Virus record (IMG/VR): IMGVR_UViG_3300045973_000386
Span: 1-29,922 of that record
Strand: one strand, 5' to 3'
DNA: 29,922 nucleotides
Source of the DNA: a virus
The translations under genes were made by a program, and so were the position numbers. The notes beneath the pieces were generated by a model. The model was not told the origin of the DNA, did not search any database, and saw only the letters and a program-made list of their open reading frames with translations. Positions 2 through 16,725 of this stretch are shown here, piece by piece. Numbering within the stretch: position 1 is the first letter of the stretch; each line of letters begins with the position of its first letter.

Positions 2-1258
2 GACTGGGCGAAGGCGTACAAGGAACTGCTCGAGGACTACAAGAAGACGGTCAAGGCGCTGGCGAAGTGGGCGATGGTGCTCAAGAAAGAGGGCGCCAGC
101 CAGGCGCAGATCACCGCTATCCAGCAGCGCCTCCAGAGCACGCTCGGCTCAGTCAGCTCGAGCGAGACCAACCCGCCTCCGGCGACCGGTTCGACCTTCG
201 TCGCCAACGACTCCATCGACCTGAAGGCGCTGGACGTCTCTAAGGCGTCTGTCGACCCCGCCAAGTTCAAGTTCATCATGCTCATGGCCTGCGCGGCGAT
301 GAACATGCCGAGCAACTTCTACGGCGACTCCTCCGACGGGAACCAGGCGTCGGCGAAGACGCTCGACCGCCCCACAGAGCTCGGCTTCCGCAGTCGTCAG
401 AACCTTTGGGGCGAGGTCTTCGTCGACTGCTGCACGATCGCCATCGAGGCCGCGGCGCTTGCGCCCAAGTCCAAGAAGGTGCAGTCGGCAGGGTACGACG
501 AGGACACCGGCCTGATGAAGATCAAGGCCGACCGCGTGCTCACCAAGGTCGACATCGACATGAACTTCCCGCCCATCCTGCAGCAGGATGTGCAGTCGGT
601 CGTGCAATCTCTGGTGACTGGAATTACGTTGAACGGCCAGCCGATCCAGGTGATGAATGACGGCCCGACCATCCTTCGCATCCTGCTCAAGGCGCTGGGC
701 ATCGACGAGATCGACGACATCGTCGAGGTCTTCTATCCCAAGGACGGATCCAAGTCTACGGCCAAGCCGATCAAGACTTATGCGAAGCCTGCTGCGCCTG
801 GTGAGAAGCCTGCCCCCGCCGATGGCCCTGCCTCCACGCTCCCCTCCGGCGCAGACGGTGCGACTTTGATCCCGGCGCAGCAGGCTGCGCAGAAGAACGA
901 GCCCACCAAGGCCCCCAAGCAGTCCGGGCCACCGCAGGCTCCTGTTCCTCCGGCCGTGAAAGAGTCCAGCGAGTTGCTCGACTCTGTGCGCCTGCTCTCG
1001 GAGACGGTGGCGAAGCAGGGCGATCGCCCGATCTCCATCCAGGCGACTATCGAGTCGCAGCCCGCCGCCCCCGTGACGGTGAACGTGCCCGAGCAGCCCG
1101 CCCCGGTGGTCACCGTGAACGTGCCCGCCGCTGAGGCCCCGGTCGTCACTGTGAACGTGCCCGAGCAGAAGCCGCGCCGGGTGAAGCGTGAGTCCAAGTT
1201 CGTCACCGACTCCGCAGGCAAGATTGTCGGCAAGTCCGAGACTGAGACTGAGGAGTAG
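2..1258 (+). CDS. Portal protein, C-terminal part (partial at 5' end)
   Basis: The frame is open from base 2, so the true start lies upstream. The portal forms the dodecameric ring at the capsid vertex through which DNA is packaged and ejected. The portal call rests on the stretch with NMPSNFYGDSSDGNQASAKT followed by a conserved helix (LDRPTELGFRSRQNLW), which resembles the late core/stem of siphovirus portals where a glycine/serine loop precedes a long helix. After the core (to about base 770) comes a long low-complexity Pro/Ala/Lys tail with three 12-residue repeats beginning VTVNVP, then a basic patch (KPRRVKRE) and an acidic end. Position before protease, scaffold and capsid genes agrees with a head module. 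The extended C-terminus is unusual in length. Portal identity is fairly sure; the role of the tail is unknown. Confidence 0.8.
   Translation, partial: DWAKAYKELLEDYKKTVKALAKWAMVLKKEGASQAQITAIQQRLQSTLGSVSSSETNPPPATGSTFVANDSIDLKALDVSKASVDPAKFKFIMLMACAAMNMPSNFYGDSSDGNQASAKTLDRPTELGFRSRQNLWGEVFVDCCTIAIEAAALAPKSKKVQSAGYDEDTGLMKIKADRVLTKVDIDMNFPPILQQDVQSVVQSLVTGITLNGQPIQVMNDGPTILRILLKALGIDEIDDIVEVFYPKDGSKSTAKPIKTYAKPAAPGEKPAPADGPASTLPSGADGATLIPAQQAAQKNEPTKAPKQSGPPQAPVPPAVKESSELLDSVRLLSETVAKQGDRPISIQATIESQPAAPVTVNVPEQPAPVVTVNVPAAEAPVVTVNVPEQKPRRVKRESKFVTDSAGKIVGKSETETEE
1073..1168 (+). repeat. Three 36-bp in-frame repeats encoding VTVNVP units in the portal tail
   Basis: Copies begin at 1073, 1109 and 1145, each starting VTVNVP followed by a short Pro/Ala/Glu spacer. 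The period is exactly 12 codons. Alternating small beta-branched residues suggest short beta strands separated by Pro-rich linkers. The unit is at the disordered-looking C-terminal extension of the portal. Confidence 0.8.
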
Positions 1259-1261
1259 ACC

Positions 1262-1666
1262 GTGGCTACGAACCTGAAACTTGCCGACGCCCATGTGAAC
1301 GCGCAGGCCGACGCTCTCAACGCGCTCTACAACGGCGGCAAGCTGCGCATCTACGACGGCACTCAGCCCGCGACGTCGGACACTGCCGTTGTCGCCCAAG
1401 TCAAGCTCGCCGAGTTCACGCTGCCGACGCCGTGCTTCGGAACCGCAGCGGCCGGGGTGCTGGCGGCCAACGCGATCACCGATGTGGTGGGTCTCGGCGG
1501 AGGCGGTGCTGCGGCCTGGTACCGCGTCGTCAAGGCCGATGGAGTCACCAGCCTGCAGGACGGCAGCGTGGGCACGTCGCTCGCGAACCTCAACATGGAT
1601 ACGACGACCATCACGGCCGGGGTCACGCAGCACATCAACTCGTGGGGCTTCACGGTGACCAAGTGA
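1262..1666 (+). CDS. Small probable virion protein (unknown function)
   Basis: A 134-residue protein starting at GTG 1262, four bases after the portal stop, with GAGGAG inside the portal end as ribosome binding site. The N-terminus (LKLADAHVNAQADALNALYN) is helical, followed by a short beta-type segment (GGKLRIYDGTQPAT) and an alanine/glycine-rich middle; the C-terminus ends INSWGFTVTK. Proteins opening with ADALNA-LYNGGKLRIYDGTQP occur among phage structural genes as I recall them, but no biochemical function is known to me. Its place between portal and protease, and the absence of catalytic motifs, suggest a head or tail-fiber-associated virion component. Start and frame are well supported; function is not. 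Confidence 0.75.
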   Translation: MATNLKLADAHVNAQADALNALYNGGKLRIYDGTQPATSDTAVVAQVKLAEFTLPTPCFGTAAAGVLAANAITDVVGLGGGGAAAWYRVVKADGVTSLQDGSVGTSLANLNMDTTTITAGVTQHINSWGFTVTK

Positions 1667-1679
1667 ACCGAGCGAGCAG

Positions 1680-2588
1680 ATGCTAGTCCTCGCCACAGCC
1701 GATTATCTCGCCGGAGACGCCGACGTAGGCAGCAAGGTCACGGCGACGATCTTCGGCATGGAGCTGAATGGCTCGACCGAGGTCTACAAAGTCCTCTACC
1801 AGGGGCAGCTTGCTGCCTCTGCGGCGACCATCTACACGGCACCGTCGTCAAACGTCGCCTTCGTCAAGTCCATCACGGTCGTGAACCCCGACACGGTCTC
1901 TCACACCTTCCAGTTGTTCCGCGGCGGGACCGCGGACGCCAACGCAATCACCCCGTCTTACACTCTGCTGCCCGGAGGGATGGCTATCTATGAGGACGGT
2001 CGCGGCTGGACGTTCTACAGCGCCAGCGGCCAGCAGCTTCAGGCCAACTTTGCCGCCATCAGTCCGATCGACAACTGGGGCATCTCCGGCTGCAAGGGCG
2101 AGACGATGGACCGCGTCTACTGCCCCGAGGTGAACACTACGGCTGGAACGACGGGACAGGTCCGCCTGCAAGCCATCTGGCTCACTGCCGGGACCATCGT
2201 CTCCAACATCGCTTTCTGTTCGGCTACCACCCTGGCGGGAGTGCCGACGCACTACGTCTTCGGCCTCTATGACATCACCGGAGCGTTGCTTGCTACCACG
2301 GCCGACCAGACGTCGACCGCGTGGGCAGCGAACACGCTCAAGACGCTCCCGGTCACTGCCGCCTACACCATCCCCACGACCGGGCTTTACTACCTCATGT
2401 TCAGCATGGTGGCGACGACCGTCGTCACGCTCAAGGGCGGCACGGCGCGGACGGACGGGGCGCTCAACTTCGCAACGCCGATCCTCTCCGGCCTGTCCGC
2501 CACCGCCTACGCGACCGGGACCGCGCCGACCTCTGTGGCGCTGCCGTCGGCCAAGTCCACCGCCTCCATCTGGGGCTGCGTGACCTGA
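1680..2588 (+). CDS. Putative virion fiber/decoration protein with two beta-rich domains
   Basis: A 302-residue protein starting at ATG 1680; the RBS is weak (GAGCGAG), so a later start such as ATG 1758 cannot be excluded. The N-terminal half contains a beta-sandwich-like module ending LLPGGMAIYEDGRGWTFYSA, a motif seen in phage structural proteins that present a small domain on the particle surface. Residues from about 150 on form a second Thr/Ala/Gly-rich module (VFGLYDITGALLATTADQTS) resembling jelly-roll C-terminal domains of phage fibers. No enzyme motif is seen. Its stop overlaps the start of the next gene (TGATG). Family resemblance is from memory and function is inferred as surface exposed, perhaps host or matrix binding. 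The placement between portal and protease genes is unusual for a fiber. Confidence 0.65.
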   Translation: MLVLATADYLAGDADVGSKVTATIFGMELNGSTEVYKVLYQGQLAASAATIYTAPSSNVAFVKSITVVNPDTVSHTFQLFRGGTADANAITPSYTLLPGGMAIYEDGRGWTFYSASGQQLQANFAAISPIDNWGISGCKGETMDRVYCPEVNTTAGTTGQVRLQAIWLTAGTIVSNIAFCSATTLAGVPTHYVFGLYDITGALLATTADQTSTAWAANTLKTLPVTAAYTIPTTGLYYLMFSMVATTVVTLKGGTARTDGALNFATPILSGLSATAYATGTAPTSVALPSAKSTASIWGCVT

Positions 2589-3616
2589 TGGCCCGCCTCA
2601 ACGCCAAGTGGAGCGACTTCTCGCAGCGCGGACAGGCATGGTACTCGTTCTGGATGGACGGGCCGACCGCCGCCGCCGCGAACAACGGTACGGCCTCTGG
2701 TAGTCAGGTTGCACAGGCTTCCGCCGTTGGAACAGTCCAGCATGAGCACATGGCAGCCACGGGCGCCCAGGCTCAGCAGGCGTCCGCGATCGCCGCCGCG
2801 CAGCATGAGCACGATGCAGTCGTCGGGATCCAGGCGGCGCAGACGTCTGCTCTTGTTTCGTCCTCGCACGAGCATCTTGCTGTGGCAGGTGCTCAGCTCG
2901 CTCAGACCTCTTCCGTCGCCGCCGACCAGCACCAGCACGCGGCCGTGGTTACAGTGCAAGCCGCCCAGGACTCCGATTCTGACCTTCACAGCCATGTCCA
3001 CTCCGAGGGAGAGGCCCAGCAGGCAGCGCAGCAATCAGCGGCCCAAGCGGCACAGCATCAGCACTTGAGCGGAGCGGCGAGTCAGCTCTCTCAGGCGTCT
3101 TCTCCGTCAATCCAGCAGACTCAGTATGTGGAGGTCGTGGGCGCGCAGCACGCCCAGGCTGCGTCCGCTGGCTCAGACCAACATCAGCACGCCGCTCTCG
3201 ACGCCGATCAGCCCGGACAGACTTCCGTTGTCTTCTCTGGCGCGGTGGTTCCTGCCAACGTCATTTCAGCTCAGGCTGCTCAGGCTACGCAGGAATCTAC
3301 ACTCGAAGTCGCCGCTTCGACGCAGCCTGCTACCAACGGCGGGGACATGGAATCCGCTCAGATGCAGCAGGATTCTGCTGCTTACTTGGTAGCAGAACAG
3401 CCGCAAGAGCTATATGTTGGTGGCTATGTACCGCTCGCGCAGGAACCGGCAGCTCGCAGTCTCTCGCCGAAGCGGCCGGAGATCGCGGTCAACTCTGGGC
3501 GCCTCGATGCGGCTCAGGAACCTCAACTTTCGAGACTCGAAGGGTTCGTCGATCCTCTCTATCTGTCGGCTCTCTTCGACCTTGACCCTGATCTCTACGC
3601 CGCGGTTGCGGCCTGA
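2588..3616 (+). CDS. Histidine-rich 21-residue-repeat protein, probable virion protein
   Basis: I start this gene at ATG 2588, which overlaps the preceding stop (TGATG), giving 342 residues; the frame is open further upstream but only inside the previous gene. Residues 1-37 form a short Trp-rich head (WSDFSQRGQAWYSFWMDG). From residue 38 there are about ten tandem 21-residue units with the pattern G-x-Q-x-A-Q-x-S at positions 1-8 and H-x-H at positions 15 and 17. H-x-H is present in units 1-6 and 8 and lost in 7, 9 and 10. The C-terminus (about 270-342) is non-repetitive, ending PLYLSALFDLDPDLYAAVAA. Strict periodicity suggests a solenoid or trimeric fiber; H-x-H pairs could bind metal, as in iron-binding tail spikes and T4 gp12, but that is inference. 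No catalytic motif is visible. Confidence 0.75.
   Translation: MARLNAKWSDFSQRGQAWYSFWMDGPTAAAANNGTASGSQVAQASAVGTVQHEHMAATGAQAQQASAIAAAQHEHDAVVGIQAAQTSALVSSSHEHLAVAGAQLAQTSSVAADQHQHAAVVTVQAAQDSDSDLHSHVHSEGEAQQAAQQSAAQAAQHQHLSGAASQLSQASSPSIQQTQYVEVVGAQHAQAASAGSDQHQHAALDADQPGQTSVVFSGAVVPANVISAQAAQATQESTLEVAASTQPATNGGDMESAQMQQDSAAYLVAEQPQELYVGGYVPLAQEPAARSLSPKRPEIAVNSGRLDAAQEPQLSRLEGFVDPLYLSALFDLDPDLYAAVAA
2699..3328 (+). repeat. Array of ten 63-bp in-frame units (21-residue H-x-H repeats)
   Basis: Units begin every 63 bases from 2699. At protein level the pattern GxQxAQxSxxxxxxHxH recurs without a single length change over ten units. At DNA level the units differ considerably (for example cagcatgagcac, tcgcacgagcat, cagcaccagcac for the H-x-H part), so the repeats are old and kept by protein-level selection rather than fresh duplications. 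The last units (9 and 10) lose the histidines but keep the AQ part. Confidence 0.88.
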
Positions 3617-3632: not shown

Positions 3633-4802
3633 GTGACTCCTGAAGAGATGCAGCAGATCATCGGCGTGATGACGCCGGAGGAGCTCAAGAAGATGAAGGA
3701 TCGCCTCGCCGCGGAGGACGCGGCTGAGGAGTCTTTGGAAGGCGACACCGTCGACCTGATCGAGAAGGCCGTCGCCGAAGACGACACGATCGACGTCAAG
3801 CTCATCTCTCCTGGCTGGGGATCCTCGGGCTACTACTCCCGTGAGGTTCTCGAGCGCGACGGGCCGGGCGCTTGGCCGGTGGGCACGCACATGCACCTCG
3901 ACCACCCGACGGAGTCCGAGAAGCGTGAGCGGCCCGAGGGTTCCGTAAAGGACCTTGCCGCGGCAATCGCGACCGTGCCCGTCTACCAGGAGAGCGGCCC
4001 GGCTGGTCCGGGCCTCTACGCGAAAGCAGCGGTGGTGCCCGAGTACAAGGGCCTCATCAACGCGCTGCAGCCGCACATCGGAGTTTCCATCCGCTCCCCC
4101 GGCACGTTCAACGAGGGAGAAGCAGAGGGACGCAGGGGTCGCATCGTCAAGGCGATCTTCAACAGCCCCATCCATAGCGCCGTCGACTTCGTCACCAAGG
4201 CCGGTCGCGGCGGACAGGTGCTCGCTCTCATGGAGAGCTGGCGCGACCCCCACGACACGACCGTCCCCGACCCGACCGACCGGAAAACCACCAAGGACGA
4301 CCCATCACACGATACCGAGGAGAATCAGAACATGGATGAGCTGCAGAAGGCTCAGGAGGCACTCACCGCCTCCGAGGCAAAGGTCGCCACGCTGACGACC
4401 GCGAACGAGGCGATGAGCACCGAGCTGGGCAGTCTGCGCGAGTCCGTGGCTCTGTCTGAGGCACGCGTGCTCGTCGGCGCAGAGGTCAACAAGGCCGAGC
4501 TGCCCGAGATCACCAAGGCACGCCTCATCGAGACTCTCGTCAAGTCGGCCCGTCTCGGCGATGACGGCAAGCTCGACGCCGCCGCGCTGACCGAGTCGGT
4601 CACCGAGACGATCACCAGTGAAGCCGACTACGTCGCCAAGCTGACGGAGTCGGGCAAGGTCCGCGACCAGGGCAAGACCAAGGCCGCGACCAGCGATGAT
4701 GCACAGGCCAAGCTCGAGGAGTCGTACCACGCCCGCTACCTGGGTGAGGGCTACTCCGAAGAGACGGCGAAGAAGATGGCGGCAACCGCCGCCGGGAGGT
4801 AA
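3633..4802 (+). CDS. Capsid maturation protease fused to scaffold domain
   Basis: A 389-residue protein from GTG 3633 with a good RBS (GAGGTGATGAG). Residues about 50-215 look like a prohead protease: ISPGWGSSGYYSREVL leads into G-T-H86-M-H88-L-D-H91-P and, 60 residues later, IGVS152IRSPG. A His followed by a Ser at this distance fits the Ser/His arrangement of HK97-type (S78-like) prohead proteases; which His is catalytic is not certain. An acidic, disordered linker (residues 216-233) leads to a coiled-coil, Glu/Lys/Ala-rich C-terminal region (234-389) typical of scaffolds. The protease would cut the scaffold and itself out of the prohead during maturation. The order protease-scaffold, decoration, major capsid protein supports the call. 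A probable internal start makes the scaffold separately. Confidence 0.85.
   Translation: MTPEEMQQIIGVMTPEELKKMKDRLAAEDAAEESLEGDTVDLIEKAVAEDDTIDVKLISPGWGSSGYYSREVLERDGPGAWPVGTHMHLDHPTESEKRERPEGSVKDLAAAIATVPVYQESGPAGPGLYAKAAVVPEYKGLINALQPHIGVSIRSPGTFNEGEAEGRRGRIVKAIFNSPIHSAVDFVTKAGRGGQVLALMESWRDPHDTTVPDPTDRKTTKDDPSHDTEENQNMDELQKAQEALTASEAKVATLTTANEAMSTELGSLRESVALSEARVLVGAEVNKAELPEITKARLIETLVKSARLGDDGKLDAAALTESVTETITSEADYVAKLTESGKVRDQGKTKAATSDDAQAKLEESYHARYLGEGYSEETAKKMAATAAGR
4317..4322 (+). promoter_or_regulatory. Internal Shine-Dalgarno for the nested scaffold
   Basis: GAGGAG lies nine bases before the in-frame ATG at 4332, within the coding sequence for the acidic linker of the protease (Thr-Glu-Glu-Asn). 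It decides the proposed internal start. Confidence 0.55.
4332..4802 (+). CDS. Nested scaffold protein from an internal in-frame start
   Basis: Inside the protease gene, ATG 4332 (protease residue 234) is preceded by GAGGAG at 4317-4322 with a 9-base spacer, as good as any RBS in the window. It sits exactly at the junction between the acidic linker and the coiled-coil segment. Initiation here would give a free 156-residue scaffold, rich in Glu, Ala and Lys with predicted coiled coil (ELQKAQEALTASEAKVATLT), in addition to the fusion. This is the arrangement of lambda C/Nu3 and several other phages, where the free scaffold is needed in excess over the protease. The signal is seen in the sequence; use of the start is inference. 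Confidence 0.6.
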   Translation: MDELQKAQEALTASEAKVATLTTANEAMSTELGSLRESVALSEARVLVGAEVNKAELPEITKARLIETLVKSARLGDDGKLDAAALTESVTETITSEADYVAKLTESGKVRDQGKTKAATSDDAQAKLEESYHARYLGEGYSEETAKKMAATAAGR

Positions 4803-4807
4803 TCACC

Positions 4808-5686
4808 ATGCTCAACGAAGTCTTCCATGACGCCTGGACGCTGTCGGTGGTCGTCACTGACCCGGCGACTCCGCAGGGCGGCGACCCGTGCCGCTGGGGC
4901 TTCCTCACCGGCGTGGCTATCGACGATGAGAACGCCGCTGGCGTGACGGTCGTCGATTTCGGACAGCGCGTCCACAGCCTCACGGTCACCGACCGGGTCG
5001 GCGGCGGCATCGCTGTCGGCGACACGCTCTACTACGCCGATGCCACCAACGACATCGACAACGTGACCACGGGGACGCCGTTCGGCTACCTCAAGGGCGC
5101 GCTGATCGGTGCGGGCGGCAACGGCACTCGTGAAGTGCTCCACGTCCCCGGCCACGGTGCTGCGACGCTGGGCGCTGGCCTCGTCGGCGCTGCCAACCTC
5201 GCCGCCAACGCGGTCGAGACGGCCAAGATCAACGCTCTGGCCGTCGAGACGGCGAAGATCAACAACCTCGCCGTCACGGCTGGCAAGCTGGCCGCAGAGT
5301 CGGTCACGGGCGCCAAGGTCGCCGAGTCGGCCGACAAGGACGTGCTGGGCGCCGTTCCGGTGCTCTACCACGCCGCCATCGCTGACGGCTCGGGCAACAC
5401 CGACATCGTCGTCACCAGCAAGATCCAGGTCGTCGACTTCTGGATCGTCTCCACTGGCCTCGCGGCTCACGCCGCCGACGACCATGTGAAGCTCACCAAC
5501 CAGACCGCCGGTCAGGACATCACGGAAGAGGTCGCCAAGACCGCCACCGTGAACTCCATCAAGCACGCCGGTACAATCCTCGCTGCGGGCGCCACGGTGG
5601 CCGACGGCGCAACGCTCCGCTTCACCGCCGTCAAGGCGACCAACGTGGCCTGCGAGGCTTACGTCCTCGCCTACCGGATCGCCTGA
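4808..5686 (+). CDS. Head decoration/fiber protein with DUF2190-like N-terminus
   Basis: A 292-residue protein with a strong RBS (GGGAGGT) before ATG 4808. Residues about 15-125 resemble the small capsid decoration (DUF2190-type) fold: a run containing GIAVGDTLYYADATNDIDNV and TPFGYLKGAL. Residues about 125-175 contain a 10-residue repeat (AVETAKINAL, AVETAKINNL, AVTAGKLAAE), a pattern found in trimeric fiber shafts. The C-terminal 110 residues look like a separate beta-rich head (VLYHAAIADGSGNTDIVVTS). It lies directly before the major capsid gene, the usual place of decoration proteins. I infer a capsid-surface trimer or short head fiber: base domain, shaft, knob. Confidence 0.7.
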   Translation: MLNEVFHDAWTLSVVVTDPATPQGGDPCRWGFLTGVAIDDENAAGVTVVDFGQRVHSLTVTDRVGGGIAVGDTLYYADATNDIDNVTTGTPFGYLKGALIGAGGNGTREVLHVPGHGAATLGAGLVGAANLAANAVETAKINALAVETAKINNLAVTAGKLAAESVTGAKVAESADKDVLGAVPVLYHAAIADGSGNTDIVVTSKIQVVDFWIVSTGLAAHAADDHVKLTNQTAGQDITEEVAKTATVNSIKHAGTILAAGATVADGATLRFTAVKATNVACEAYVLAYRIA

Positions 5687-5705: not shown

Positions 5706-6833
5706 ATGGCTGATGAACTGCAGACCTTCTCGGACGACGAAGGCTTCGTCCGCTTGAAGGAAACCCCACGCGTCAAGGCTGGGGTCACCCAGCTCAACGA
5801 GATCCTCGCGAATGACCCGTACATGGTCTCGCGCTGGGTCGACGACCTGCGTCACGACCACGTCAGGAACCTCACCGAGGCAATCGCCCCCGGCGACTTC
5901 CCGACGCTGTTCGGCTTCCTCATCCAGAGGGACATGCTGGCGAAGTACGCCGAGATGCCCTCCGAGTGGCGTCGGTGGATCCCCACCGGCACCGTGCCGA
6001 ACTTCAACGTCCACCGCAAGCTCAAGGTGTACGGCCAGGACAACGAGCTGTCGGTGGTCCTGCCGGGCGCCCCGTACCCCGAGACGGTTTCGGCGACCTC
6101 TGGGTACAACCGTTCGGTCGTCAAGTACGGCCGTCGGTTCGACATCCTCTGGGAAGCCATCGTCAACGACGCGCTCGGCGCCTTCAGCGACATCCCCGCC
6201 CGTTTCGCGACAGCGGTCAGCCGCACCCAGGCCAAGAACGCGACGCGGATCTACTCGTCCGCCGCGGGCCCCAACCCGGCCCTCTTCGGTACGCCGATCG
6301 TGGACGTCGATGGTCAGAACGTGACCAACCAGGGCGTGCTTCCGTTCAACGTCACCAACCTCGCCATCACGCGTCGGCTGCTGGCGAACCAGACCGATCC
6401 CAACGGCGAGCGCATCGGCCTCACGGCGAAGTACCTCGTCGTGCCGGGCAGCCTCGCCGACGCCGCCTTCATCGCTCTGCACAGCATGAATCTGCAGCAG
6501 GCTGCTTCGGCGACTCCGGTCCCGACGATCAACCCGGCCTCCAACTGGGGCCTGCAGCTCATCGTCGACGACTACCTCGAGACCATCGACCTGACCGGCA
6601 CCTCGGATACCACCTGGTACCTGTTCGCCGAGCCCGGTGGGGCCTCCGCTCTGCAGATGGACTTCCTCGCCGGTAACATCGGCCCGGACATCCGCATCAG
6701 GAGCAACGGCGCGAGCAGCGGCAACCCGATGGACGGCAGCTTCGAGACCGACACCATCGCCTACCGCGTGCGCGACGTGCATGGCGGCTCGTGCTTCGAG
6801 CCGCGCTACTGCTACGCGCAGGTCGGTCCGTGA
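5706..6833 (+). CDS. Major capsid protein (HK97-fold expected)
   Basis: A 375-residue protein with RBS AAGGGAAGGA before ATG 5706. It follows protease, scaffold and decoration genes and precedes the connector genes, the standard place of the major capsid gene. N-terminal helices (VKAGVTQLNEILANDP) are followed by an E-loop-like region (IPTGTVPNFNVHRKLKVYGQ) and a P-domain-like region with NDALGAFSDIPARFATAVSR; the last part carries LVVPGSLADAAFIAL and IDLTGTSDTTWYLFAEPG, common in capsid proteins of this group, where a peptide is recognised as FAEPG/ADP-type before the C-terminal strand. A strong hairpin directly after it is typical for a highly transcribed capsid gene. No second capsid gene is seen. 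Confidence 0.88.
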   Translation: MADELQTFSDDEGFVRLKETPRVKAGVTQLNEILANDPYMVSRWVDDLRHDHVRNLTEAIAPGDFPTLFGFLIQRDMLAKYAEMPSEWRRWIPTGTVPNFNVHRKLKVYGQDNELSVVLPGAPYPETVSATSGYNRSVVKYGRRFDILWEAIVNDALGAFSDIPARFATAVSRTQAKNATRIYSSAAGPNPALFGTPIVDVDGQNVTNQGVLPFNVTNLAITRRLLANQTDPNGERIGLTAKYLVVPGSLADAAFIALHSMNLQQAASATPVPTINPASNWGLQLIVDDYLETIDLTGTSDTTWYLFAEPGGASALQMDFLAGNIGPDIRIRSNGASSGNPMDGSFETDTIAYRVRDVHGGSCFEPRYCYAQVGP

Positions 6834-6858
6834 TCTGAAGGCTCGCTACCAAGGACCA

Positions 6859-6888
6859 CCCCGGGGGCGCTTCGGACGGCCCCCGGGG
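6859..6888 (+). terminator. Perfect 10-bp G+C hairpin after the capsid gene
   Basis: Arms CCCCGGGGGC (6859-6868) and GCCCCCGGGG (6879-6888) are exact complements; the 10-base loop contains C-UUCG-G (6870-6875), a very stable tetraloop. No T-run follows, so it may act as an attenuator, RNA-processing or mRNA-stabilising element rather than a full intrinsic terminator. It lies between the capsid stop and the RBS of the next gene. Confidence 0.65.
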
Positions 6889-6919
6889 AGTACCACTAGG
6901 TGAGAGAGGAGGTTGCTTG

Positions 6920-7228
6920 ATGGACGTTTTCCCGTTTGCCCCCCAGCACGAGCAGCCTGTCGTGAGTGACGAAGAAGCTTCGGAAGCGGCACACACCCTC
7001 GCCAACCCGAAGGCCGTGGCGTCTGAGGCTGGGCGGGTCCTTGCGATCCACCAGCATCAGGAGCAGGAAGCTGAGAAAGCGACCGAGGAGGTGGTCCTCG
7101 ATTCTGGCGACCAGATCATCCCGGACCCTGCCCCGGTGCAGGCGGAAGTGGTCGTCGATGAACCGGCTGCCAAGGAACCGGCTGCCAAGAAAGCGCCCAA
7201 GGCGAAGAGTGTGAGGAAGCCCAAGTGA
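6920..7228 (+). CDS. Small charged protein between capsid and connector genes (unknown)
   Basis: A 102-residue protein. I choose ATG 6920 over TTG 6917 because GAGAGGAGG ends seven bases upstream. The N-terminal half is acidic with a short helix (DEEASEAAHTLANPKAVA), the middle has QHQEQEAEKATEEV, and the C-terminus is a Lys/Ala/Pro tail (AAKEPAAKKAPKAKSVRKPK) typical of unstructured, nucleic-acid- or protein-binding ends. Many siphoviruses have such a small gene between capsid and head-tail adaptor; function is not known to me. Its last four bases overlap the next start (GTGA). Confidence 0.7.
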   Translation: MDVFPFAPQHEQPVVSDEEASEAAHTLANPKAVASEAGRVLAIHQHQEQEAEKATEEVVLDSGDQIIPDPAPVQAEVVVDEPAAKEPAAKKAPKAKSVRKPK

Positions 7229-15159: not shown

Positions 15160-16725
15160 ATGACACTTATCGCACCAACGGCAGAGGCGGGGACGGGCGG
15201 CTACACGGCCGACGGGCGGCAGTTCGCCCTCGCCACGAGCGACGAGCTTCAGTACGCGAACGCCGCTGGGGGCGCTCCTCTGCTCGACGCTTCAGACGGC
15301 ACTATCGCCTTCGTCTACACACCGACCTCGCTGGCGGCTGACTACCGGAGCTTCTTCTGGTGTGGCCCTCTGCGCATCATCGTGCAGGCCGACAGCTCCG
15401 ACCTCATCTACTACTTCACGCTCGACGATGTGCAGGCCACCCTTACCACGACACGCATCCCCTACGCGGTCGGCGATCACATACCAATTGTCGCTCGCTT
15501 TACTGAGGACTTCATCTACATGAACGTCAAAGGCGTCGAGCAGACGCCTGTCGCCAACACCCGTGCTGGCAGCCTGACCGTGCAGACGCCCATCAAGGTA
15601 GGCTTCGGCAACTCGATCATGGCCGAGGGCGCTATCAAGGGGCTGACGCTCTCGCCCCGGGCAAAGAGGCAGGAGTGGGTGGACGCAGTCGTCGCGGATG
15701 AGGGAGCACTTCTGAGCGACGTCGATGCGATGGTCACCGCCCACATGGTCCCCGGTGATTCTCACTTCCCGCTGATCGCCAACAGCGGCGGGTATGCGCT
15801 TGGTAACGCGGCTACGCCGCAGATCATTTGCGACGGCGATTCGCTGACGCGGGGATACGGGTCTGCGCCGGGTCAAGACTACCCGTCGCAACTGAGCCGC
15901 CTGCTGGACACGCGGCTGGTGCGCGCCTTTGGCGTGGGCGGGCAGTTCATCGACTCGATGAACGCCGACGCGGCGGCGCAGATCGACCCGCTGTACTCAG
16001 CGGCGCGCACGGAGAACGTGGTCATCTGCTGGGCAGGCGTCAACGACATCTACCAGGTCGACGAGGACCCGGCGACGATCTACGCCGCCGTGGTCGACTA
16101 CTGCCAGGACCGGCAGGCAGCCGGGTTCAAGGTCGTTGTCGCCACGATGCTGTCGTTCGGAGCTTCAGCGCCTCCCGACCACGAGGAGTCACGGCAGACT
16201 TTCAACGCTCTCGTCCGCGCCAACTGGGCGACGTTTTCCGACGGGCTGGCCGATCTGGCTGCCGACCCCCGCATCGGACTACCCGGGGCGTGCCACGACC
16301 GCGCCTATTTCTACGGCGACGAGGTTCACCTTATTGACGCCGGGTATGCCATCGTGGCGGGCATCTTCTCAGCGGCCTTGGTCACTGCCGTTCCGATCAG
16401 CGTCTTGTCTGCTGCCGAGGCGGTGCAGGGCAGCCTCAGCATCTCGTCCGGCGACACGGCCCCGATCCTTGAGACCATCCCCTGCGACCTGACGGGCTGC
16501 GTCGTGACGTGGGCTGTCGCAAGGAACCCGGGGAGCGCGCCACTGGTGACCAAGACGGCGGCTGTGCTGGACGCTGCGGCGGGTAAAATCGCGGTCACGC
16601 TGGCCTCGGGTGACACGTCTGCGCTGTCCGGACTCTACTACCGGGAGGTGCAGGTGACCGACGCGAGCGGTGCGGTGAAGACGCTTCTCTATGGCCGCAT
16701 CATGGTCCGGGCGGACAGCGCGTGA
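15160..16725 (+). CDS. Tail protein with SGNH/GDSL hydrolase domain
   Basis: A 521-residue protein with RBS GAGGA before ATG 15160. Residues about 20-180 look like a concanavalin/LamG-type lectin domain (GTIAFVYTPTSLAADYRSFF ... GFGNSIMAEGAIKGL). Residues 220-415 form an SGNH hydrolase: block I G226-D-S228-L-T-R-G-Y-G with the nucleophile Ser228, block II GVGGQ, block III G293-V-N295-D, and block V D387-E-V-H390. All four catalytic positions (S, G, N, H plus Asp) are present. The C-terminal ~100 residues (VPISVLSAAEAVQGSLSIS ... GLYYREVQVTDASGAVKTL) resemble the N-terminal module of phage baseplate upper proteins. It probably removes acyl groups from host surface glycans at adsorption. Confidence 0.82.
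   Translation: MTLIAPTAEAGTGGYTADGRQFALATSDELQYANAAGGAPLLDASDGTIAFVYTPTSLAADYRSFFWCGPLRIIVQADSSDLIYYFTLDDVQATLTTTRIPYAVGDHIPIVARFTEDFIYMNVKGVEQTPVANTRAGSLTVQTPIKVGFGNSIMAEGAIKGLTLSPRAKRQEWVDAVVADEGALLSDVDAMVTAHMVPGDSHFPLIANSGGYALGNAATPQIICDGDSLTRGYGSAPGQDYPSQLSRLLDTRLVRAFGVGGQFIDSMNADAAAQIDPLYSAARTENVVICWAGVNDIYQVDEDPATIYAAVVDYCQDRQAAGFKVVVATMLSFGASAPPDHEESRQTFNALVRANWATFSDGLADLAADPRIGLPGACHDRAYFYGDEVHLIDAGYAIVAGIFSAALVTAVPISVLSAAEAVQGSLSISSGDTAPILETIPCDLTGCVVTWAVARNPGSAPLVTKTAAVLDAAAGKIAVTLASGDTSALSGLYYREVQVTDASGAVKTLLYGRIMVRADSA

What the first reader, a model, noticed from the sequence alone, without database searches (positions are those of the whole stretch)
2588..3616. Virion gene with seven regularly spaced H-x-H motifs in a 21-residue repeat
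Ten 21-residue units follow each other without length change; seven have H-x-H at positions 15 and 17 and all keep a Q-x-x-Q-type pattern at 3-6. DNA sequences of the units differ, so protein-level selection holds the pattern. In T4 gp12 and P2-type spikes, H-x-H triplets from three chains bind iron; here a trimer would bring six His per level at seven levels along a shaft, a possible metal-studded fiber. I know of AQ-rich repeat proteins in phages, but not of this His arrangement.
Basis: partly seen in the sequence, partly recalled or inferred. Interest (0 to 1): 0.78.

Follow-up and report, generated by a model that had tools for sequence, protein, structure and literature searches.

The report
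Phage appendage protein with histidine ladder
A gene of an uncultured tailed phage encodes a probable virion protein made of ten 21-residue repeats, most carrying two fixed histidines; it is a histidine-bearing version of a widespread but uncatalogued phage repeat protein that nearly always sits next to a gene for a 'garland' protein of the phage's host-attachment machinery.

Summary
In detail: residues 38-247 of the gene at 2588-3616 are ten exact 21-residue units, seven with H-x-H at positions 15/17 and all with Q-x-x-Q at 3-6, far above chance. In two distinct homologs (four IMG/VR contigs) all 13 histidines of units 1-6 are conserved, several through changed codons; histidines of later units are not. 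The repeat belongs to a large phage family with the same 21-residue period but no histidine (Thr, Lys, Val, Arg instead), so the histidines decorate a common scaffold. The scaffold gene is paired with a phrog_3758 gene in 20 of 22 informative loci and in mycobacteriophages (Charlie, Papyrus, Fowlmouth), Vibrio phage 367.14 and Agrobacterium phage OLIVR4. phrog_3758 is the garland protein of phage 7-7-1 (PDB 9rkv); here it is gene 1262-1666. Best reading: an appendage (fibre or 'string') protein working with garland beads in host attachment; the H-x-H pairs form a ladder of ligand sites for metal or partner. Metal-studded fibres are not new: T4 gp37 holds seven irons by H-x-H, and phage R22Y has six H-x-H. 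Trimer, metal and direct garland binding were not testable here. New variant of a known kind.

The parts
2588..3616 (+). Gene of the 342-aa repeat protein (ATG overlaps the stop of the upstream gene)
2699..3328 (+). Ten tandem 21-residue units (residues 38-247), Q3 and Q6 in every unit
2741..3064 (+). Units 1-6 H-x-H ladder: 2741-2749, 2804-2812, 2867-2875, 2930-2938, 2987-3001 (HSHVH), 3056-3064; 13 His, all conserved in the homologs of L047 and L013
3182..3190 (+). Seventh H-x-H (unit 8), not conserved in the homologs
3560..3613 (+). C-terminal tail YLSALFDLDPDLYAAVAA, shared with the homologs (LTALFDLDADLAMAA, LTALCDLDEDLAWAA); possible docking peptide
1262..1666 (+). Garland-type protein gene (phrog_3758; homolog of phage 7-7-1 garland protein, PDB 9rkv_A); the repeat gene's regular partner
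1680..2588 (+). Gene between the two (302 aa, no family match); the homologous loci have another small gene in this place
74..1258 (+). Portal protein, C-terminal part (window begins inside the gene)
   Evidence: phrog_10963 E=7.6e-19
3633..4802 (+). Head maturation protease/scaffold
   Evidence: phrog_15531 E=1.4e-28
5706..6833 (+). Major capsid protein
   Evidence: PF25209 E=8e-33

Best explanation
The gene encodes an elongated virion appendage protein of the host-attachment apparatus. Shown: ten 21-residue units; membership by sequence in a phage-wide 21-residue repeat family; regular genetic pairing with a garland-type protein; purifying selection on the histidines of units 1-6. Inferred: the repeat runs as a beta-rich rod or string with one identical step per 21 residues, along or around which garland dimers assemble, as the garland wraps the tail fibres of phages 7-7-1 and Milano. 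In this subfamily each of the first six steps presents an H-x-H pair on the same edge, giving two columns of histidines, used as ligand sites, either for metal ions that tie neighbouring chains or levels together, or as the contact strand for the paired garland protein. The hydrophobic/acidic C-terminal tail may anchor the protein to the particle.
For: Repeat and chance tests. Homologs with the same gene order portal - phrog_3758 - small gene - H-x-H repeat gene and 13/13 His kept. Orthologous units are more alike (11.5/21) than non-orthologous ones (8.1/21), so the array is old and fixed. His-free relatives with the same 21-aa step. phrog_3758-like gene upstream on the same strand in 20 of 27 repeat loci (20 of 22 with enough upstream DNA) against 8 of 221 other loci. 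Reverse test from phages found through phrog_3758 alone: 21-aa repeat proteins nearby in Fowlmouth, Vibrio 367.14 and OLIVR4, none among 129 control genes; same arrangement in Charlie and Papyrus, whose repeat protein is annotated minor tail protein. Partner is homologous to the solved 7-7-1 garland protein (E=1.6e-37). Garland biology: PMC12796354, PMC10811340. Beta structure with 21-residue strand/turn period in the family-alignment model.
Against: No virion proteomics or structure for this phage or for any H-x-H member. The structure model is of modest confidence (pLDDT 60.9) and AF2 is known to give false beta-solenoids for repeats (PMC11795689); with the three close homologs only it gave pLDDT 34 and helices/coil. 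In the window the cassette lies in the head module, not the tail module. Gene pairing does not prove binding. Metal binding is untested.
Confidence: 0.6

Rival explanations
1. Metal-studded trimeric fibre: three chains wind together and at each of six or seven levels six histidines bind an iron or zinc ion, as in T4 gp37, stabilising the shaft.
For: His conserved at a fixed step; T4 gp37 binds seven irons by H-x-H and R22Y gp12 is modelled likewise with H-x-H 22 residues apart (PMC11705849).
Against: Relatives of the same repeat lack His, so the shaft does not need metal; T4 gp37 spacing is irregular and the R22Y context (H-x-H followed by D/E-I-x-x-L) is absent here; no trimer model could be made.
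Confidence: 0.25
2. String for garland beads: the repeat region is an extended chain and each 21-residue unit is a linear motif that binds one phrog_3758 dimer by adding a strand, giving beads on a string; the H-x-H strand is the contact in this subfamily.
For: Regular pairing with phrog_3758; garland-like A511 gp105 forms beads on a string on an extended chain and even on His-tags, and the string of the Milano garland is unknown (PMC10811340); the period is conserved while residues diverge and copy number varies.
Against: No direct binding data; the family model is a regular beta fold; in phages 7-7-1 and Milano the garland contacts the distal parts of tail fibres and spikes.
Confidence: 0.25
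3. Plain beta-solenoid spacer fibre whose surface H-x-H ladder has neither metal nor partner role (for example a pH-sensitive or sugar-facing surface).
For: Model with parallel beta-helix matches; residues of many kinds at the same positions in relatives.
Against: Strict conservation of 13 His in units 1-6 among proteins only 43-45% identical overall.
Confidence: 0.2

Closest known systems
21-residue-repeat minor tail/structural proteins paired with phrog_3758 (Mycobacterium phages Fowlmouth gp26 [phrog_553], Charlie gp22, Papyrus gp32; Curvibacter phage P26059A gene 7 and Vibrio phage 367.14 [phrog_38872]; OLIVR4 gp114)
   Same: 21-aa period, partner gene of the phrog_3758 family close by, structural module
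   Different: No H-x-H ladder; other residues at positions 3/6 (ExxD and others); often longer, with extra domains; for the most divergent ones (OLIVR4, Fowlmouth) only the period is shared, so common descent is not shown
Garland protein of Agrobacterium phage 7-7-1 (PDB 9rkv_A) and Milano gp125/gp127
   Same: 7-7-1 garland protein is a homolog of the partner gene 1262-1666
   Different: It is the partner, not the repeat protein; 7-7-1/Milano are myophages and their garland sits at the baseplate
T4 gp37 receptor-binding tip and Alteromonas phage R22Y gp12 (H-x-H iron fibres)
   Same: Several H-x-H motifs along one fibre chain
   Different: Irregular (T4) or 22-aa (R22Y) spacing, other sequence context, no QxxQ repeat, tail fibre genes
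Parallel beta-helix fibres and tailspikes (e.g. 7-7-1 long tail fibre, 9rkv_N)
   Same: Modest-confidence model aligns to them (VIA-align Z 11.9, 171 residues, rmsd 3.2)
   Different: No sequence relation found; Foldseek itself gave no significant PDB match

Membership tests
Phage 21-residue-repeat structural proteins paired with phrog_3758 | Tandem units of 21 residues | tested here: met
Phage 21-residue-repeat structural proteins paired with phrog_3758 | Polar pair at positions 3 and 6 (Q/E ... Q/D/N) in each unit, alignable in phase with other members | tested here: met
   Q3/Q6 in 10/10 units; in-phase alignments A4/A5
Phage 21-residue-repeat structural proteins paired with phrog_3758 | phrog_3758-type gene close upstream on the same strand | tested here: met
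   gene 1262-1666, phrog_3758 E=3.4e-26, 922 bases upstream
Phage 21-residue-repeat structural proteins paired with phrog_3758 | Present in virions | not testable with these tools
   no proteomics of this uncultured phage
H-x-H iron-binding tail fibres (T4 gp37 type) | Several H-x-H motifs along one chain | tested here: met
   seven in phase
H-x-H iron-binding tail fibres (T4 gp37 type) | Sequence context of the known members (R22Y: H-x-H then D/E-I-x-x-L every 22 residues; T4: short irregular spacing) | tested here: not met
H-x-H iron-binding tail fibres (T4 gp37 type) | Trimer with octahedral iron between three H-x-H pairs | not testable with these tools
   no multimer prediction or metal assay
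Parallel beta-helix/solenoid fibre | Coils of constant length stacked in parallel | tested here: inconclusive
   model pLDDT 60.9 with 21-residue strand period, matches to beta-helices; artefact known for repeats (PMC11795689)
Collagen-like phage fibre (G-x-y) | Glycine every third residue | tested here: not met
   sequence; collagen-like QGAQG hits separated

The most novel reading that the evidence does not exclude
The 21-residue repeat proteins are the missing strings on which garland (phrog_3758) dimers are threaded one per repeat, forming a beaded virion filament present across phages of many hosts; in this subfamily the bead-binding strand is H-x-H, possibly metal-bridged. The same class (7-7-1 gene 108) could supply the unidentified capsid fibre of phage 7-7-1.
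Probability: 0.2. Interest if true: 0.8.

Novelty: new variant of a known kind. Interest (0 to 1): 0.5.

Why it matters
It ties an uncatalogued, phage-wide 21-residue repeat to the garland proteins whose scaffold is an open question in the Milano cryo-EM work, and it names cultivable test systems (Charlie gp22/gp24, Papyrus gp32/gp34, 7-7-1 gene 108). The H-x-H subfamily adds a natural, evenly spaced histidine ladder whose metal or partner role can be tested directly on a small recombinant protein.

Tried and rejected
tblastn of the window protein and its homolog against annotated phages gave nothing; the close-relative scan of viral contigs gave nothing, and the alignment scans added no new proteins in viral contigs and none in genomes. 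A degenerate H-x-H/QxxQ pattern was needed to find homologs; most of its 55 hits were His/Gln-rich low-complexity or read through stops. A genome-wide pattern scan gave nine hits, all low-complexity, interrupted by stops or coiled-coil-like, none related. A scan for the C-terminal motif found only the known homologs plus unrelated proteins. Pfam, PHROGs and NCBIfam hold no model for this protein; weak Pfam/PHROG hits (E 0.005-0.15) were treated as chance. Structure from three sequences failed (pLDDT 34). Foldseek gave no significant PDB match; viral hits were mixed and of low TM-score. The middle gene 1680-2588 was not linked by HMM to the small gene seen at other family loci. A collagen-like reading was rejected.

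Full report
Observation. The window is a 29,922-base uncultured-virus record with portal, head protease, major capsid, tape measure and tail genes. The gene at 2588-3616 encodes 342 aa. Residues 38-247 are ten units of exactly 21 residues; Q stands at positions 3 and 6 of all ten, H-x-H at 15/17 of units 1-6 and 8. Both the period and the common phase of the H-x-H motifs are far beyond shuffled controls. Units differ in DNA (identity 0.38-0.67), so this is not a recent duplication.

Homologs and selection. Sequence searches failed at first. A degenerate DNA pattern for H-x-H and QxxQ at the right spacing found true homologs in four IMG/VR contigs, two distinct proteins (L013; L008/L047/L057 share one). 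They have the same gene order: portal, phrog_3758 gene, a small gene, the repeat gene. Overall identity is 43-45%, yet all 13 histidines of units 1-6 are kept in both, 3 and 7 of them through synonymous codon changes; histidines of units 7-8 differ. Orthologous units resemble each other more (11.5 of 21) than non-orthologous units do (8.1; about 8.3-8.6 within one protein), so the array was already fixed in the common ancestor. The closest relatives by capsid protein show no H-x-H repeat gene between portal and protease, so it travels as a cassette.

A wide family. Scans for QxAQ repeated every 21 residues found many phage proteins with the same period and no H-x-H ladder: L093 (TFTGTETSAQAAQST), L084/L213, L171, L077, L225, L181 and others. 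In phase, the H-x-H positions correspond to residues such as Thr, Arg, Lys, Ser or Val. Some members carry other domains (L171 matches a virion structural PHROG). Curvibacter phage P26059A gene 7 is a member with ExxD in place of QxxQ.

The partner. The gene at 1262-1666 belongs to phrog_3758. A phrog_3758-type gene lies upstream on the same strand in 20 of 27 repeat loci, 20 of 22 when at least about 1.9 kb upstream is held, against 8 of 221 other loci, five of which were fetched through phrog_3758 or carry repeat proteins themselves. Some repeat loci are near-copies of each other, so the count of independent cases is somewhat lower; no correction for kinship was made. The reverse test is independent: of four phages found only by phrog_3758 similarity (MrMiyagi, close to Fowlmouth, not counted), Fowlmouth, Vibrio 367.14 and OLIVR4 have a protein with a clear 21-residue period nearby and Atu_ph07 does not; none of 129 control genes has one. 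Charlie and Papyrus, found by similarity to the Fowlmouth repeat protein, have a phrog_3758 gene (E about 1e-35) two genes after it; the period is strong in Papyrus and weaker in Charlie and in 7-7-1 gene 108. The Fowlmouth repeat protein is phrog_553, minor tail protein; P26059A and 367.14 match phrog_38872, unknown function.

What the partner is. A profile of the phrog_3758 genes matches chain A of PDB 9rkv (E=1.6e-37; that profile included the 7-7-1 and OLIVR4 genes), and the profile of the three closest genes alone also finds it (E=5.9e-9). PHROGs places 7-7-1 genes 103 and 105 in phrog_3758. The 7-7-1 paper describes 36 garland proteins around the distal parts of tail fibres (PMC12796354); identification of gene 103 with the paper's garland protein rests on its gene order beside the long tail fibre and on this chain match. 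In Milano the garland dimers resemble T4 gp8 and A511 gp105; the latter form beads on a string along an extended chain, or along His-tags in crystals, and the string of the Milano garland is unknown (PMC10811340).

Structure. AF2 on the three close homologs gave no usable model (pLDDT 34). With 18 in-phase family fragments it gave a beta structure for residues 38-226 with strands of about 18 residues and turns every 21, pLDDT 60.9; the turn ends at the first His of each H-x-H. Foldseek gave no significant PDB match; re-alignment favours parallel beta-helices, among them the 7-7-1 long tail fibre (Z 11.9, 171 residues, rmsd 3.2). AF2 is known to produce false beta-solenoids for repeats (PMC11795689), so this is only a hint. 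No coordinates were available, so His distances were not measured.

Mechanism. I read the protein as an appendage component of the attachment apparatus, working with the garland protein encoded two genes upstream. Shown: period, family, pairing, selection on His. Inferred: rod or string, one step per unit, garland dimers bound along it or around it, His pairs as ligand sites. Whether the ligand is metal or the garland protein is open. Metal-bearing H-x-H fibres are known: seven irons in T4 gp37 and six H-x-H in R22Y gp12 (PMC11705849), but with different context and spacing.

Verdict. Observation confirmed; interpretation partly supported; new variant of a known kind. The wider link between 21-residue repeat proteins and garland proteins is the more interesting result.

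Noticed in passing
L268:2932-3954 (phage 7-7-1 gene 108) and L266:9745-11109 (OLIVR4 gp114): Annotated structural/hypothetical proteins near the garland gene with 21-residue repeats (GDW-YP-Y and LPDAT types); no solved structure of 7-7-1 gene 108. Candidates for the unidentified 7-7-1 capsid fibre or the garland string.
   Followed up: partly
window 1262-1666 and phrog_3758: PHROGs files phrog_3758 under head and packaging, but the solved member (9rkv_A) is a garland protein at the baseplate and mycobacteriophage members lie in the tail module; the category looks misleading.
   Followed up: partly
L013:2936-3208, L171:64-372, L077:8580-8828, L225 about 6668-7072: Small genes with a cysteine cluster (such as CxxCGxCC) lie directly next to the repeat gene in several phages.
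   Followed up: no
window 15160-16725: Protein with a GDSL/SGNH-hydrolase-like motif (ICDGDSLTRGYG) in the tail module, possibly a tail-borne esterase; seen by eye only.
   Followed up: no
window 4808-5686: Gene between protease and capsid gene has a tail-fibre-like stretch (NAVETAKINALAVETAKIN) with a period near 10 residues.
   Followed up: no
L267:6413-8041: Vibrio phage 367.14 repeat protein has nearly identical 21-residue units (DEQPDELAASGTLTTSGQAAI), a recently expanded array directly after the phrog_3758 gene.
   Followed up: partly
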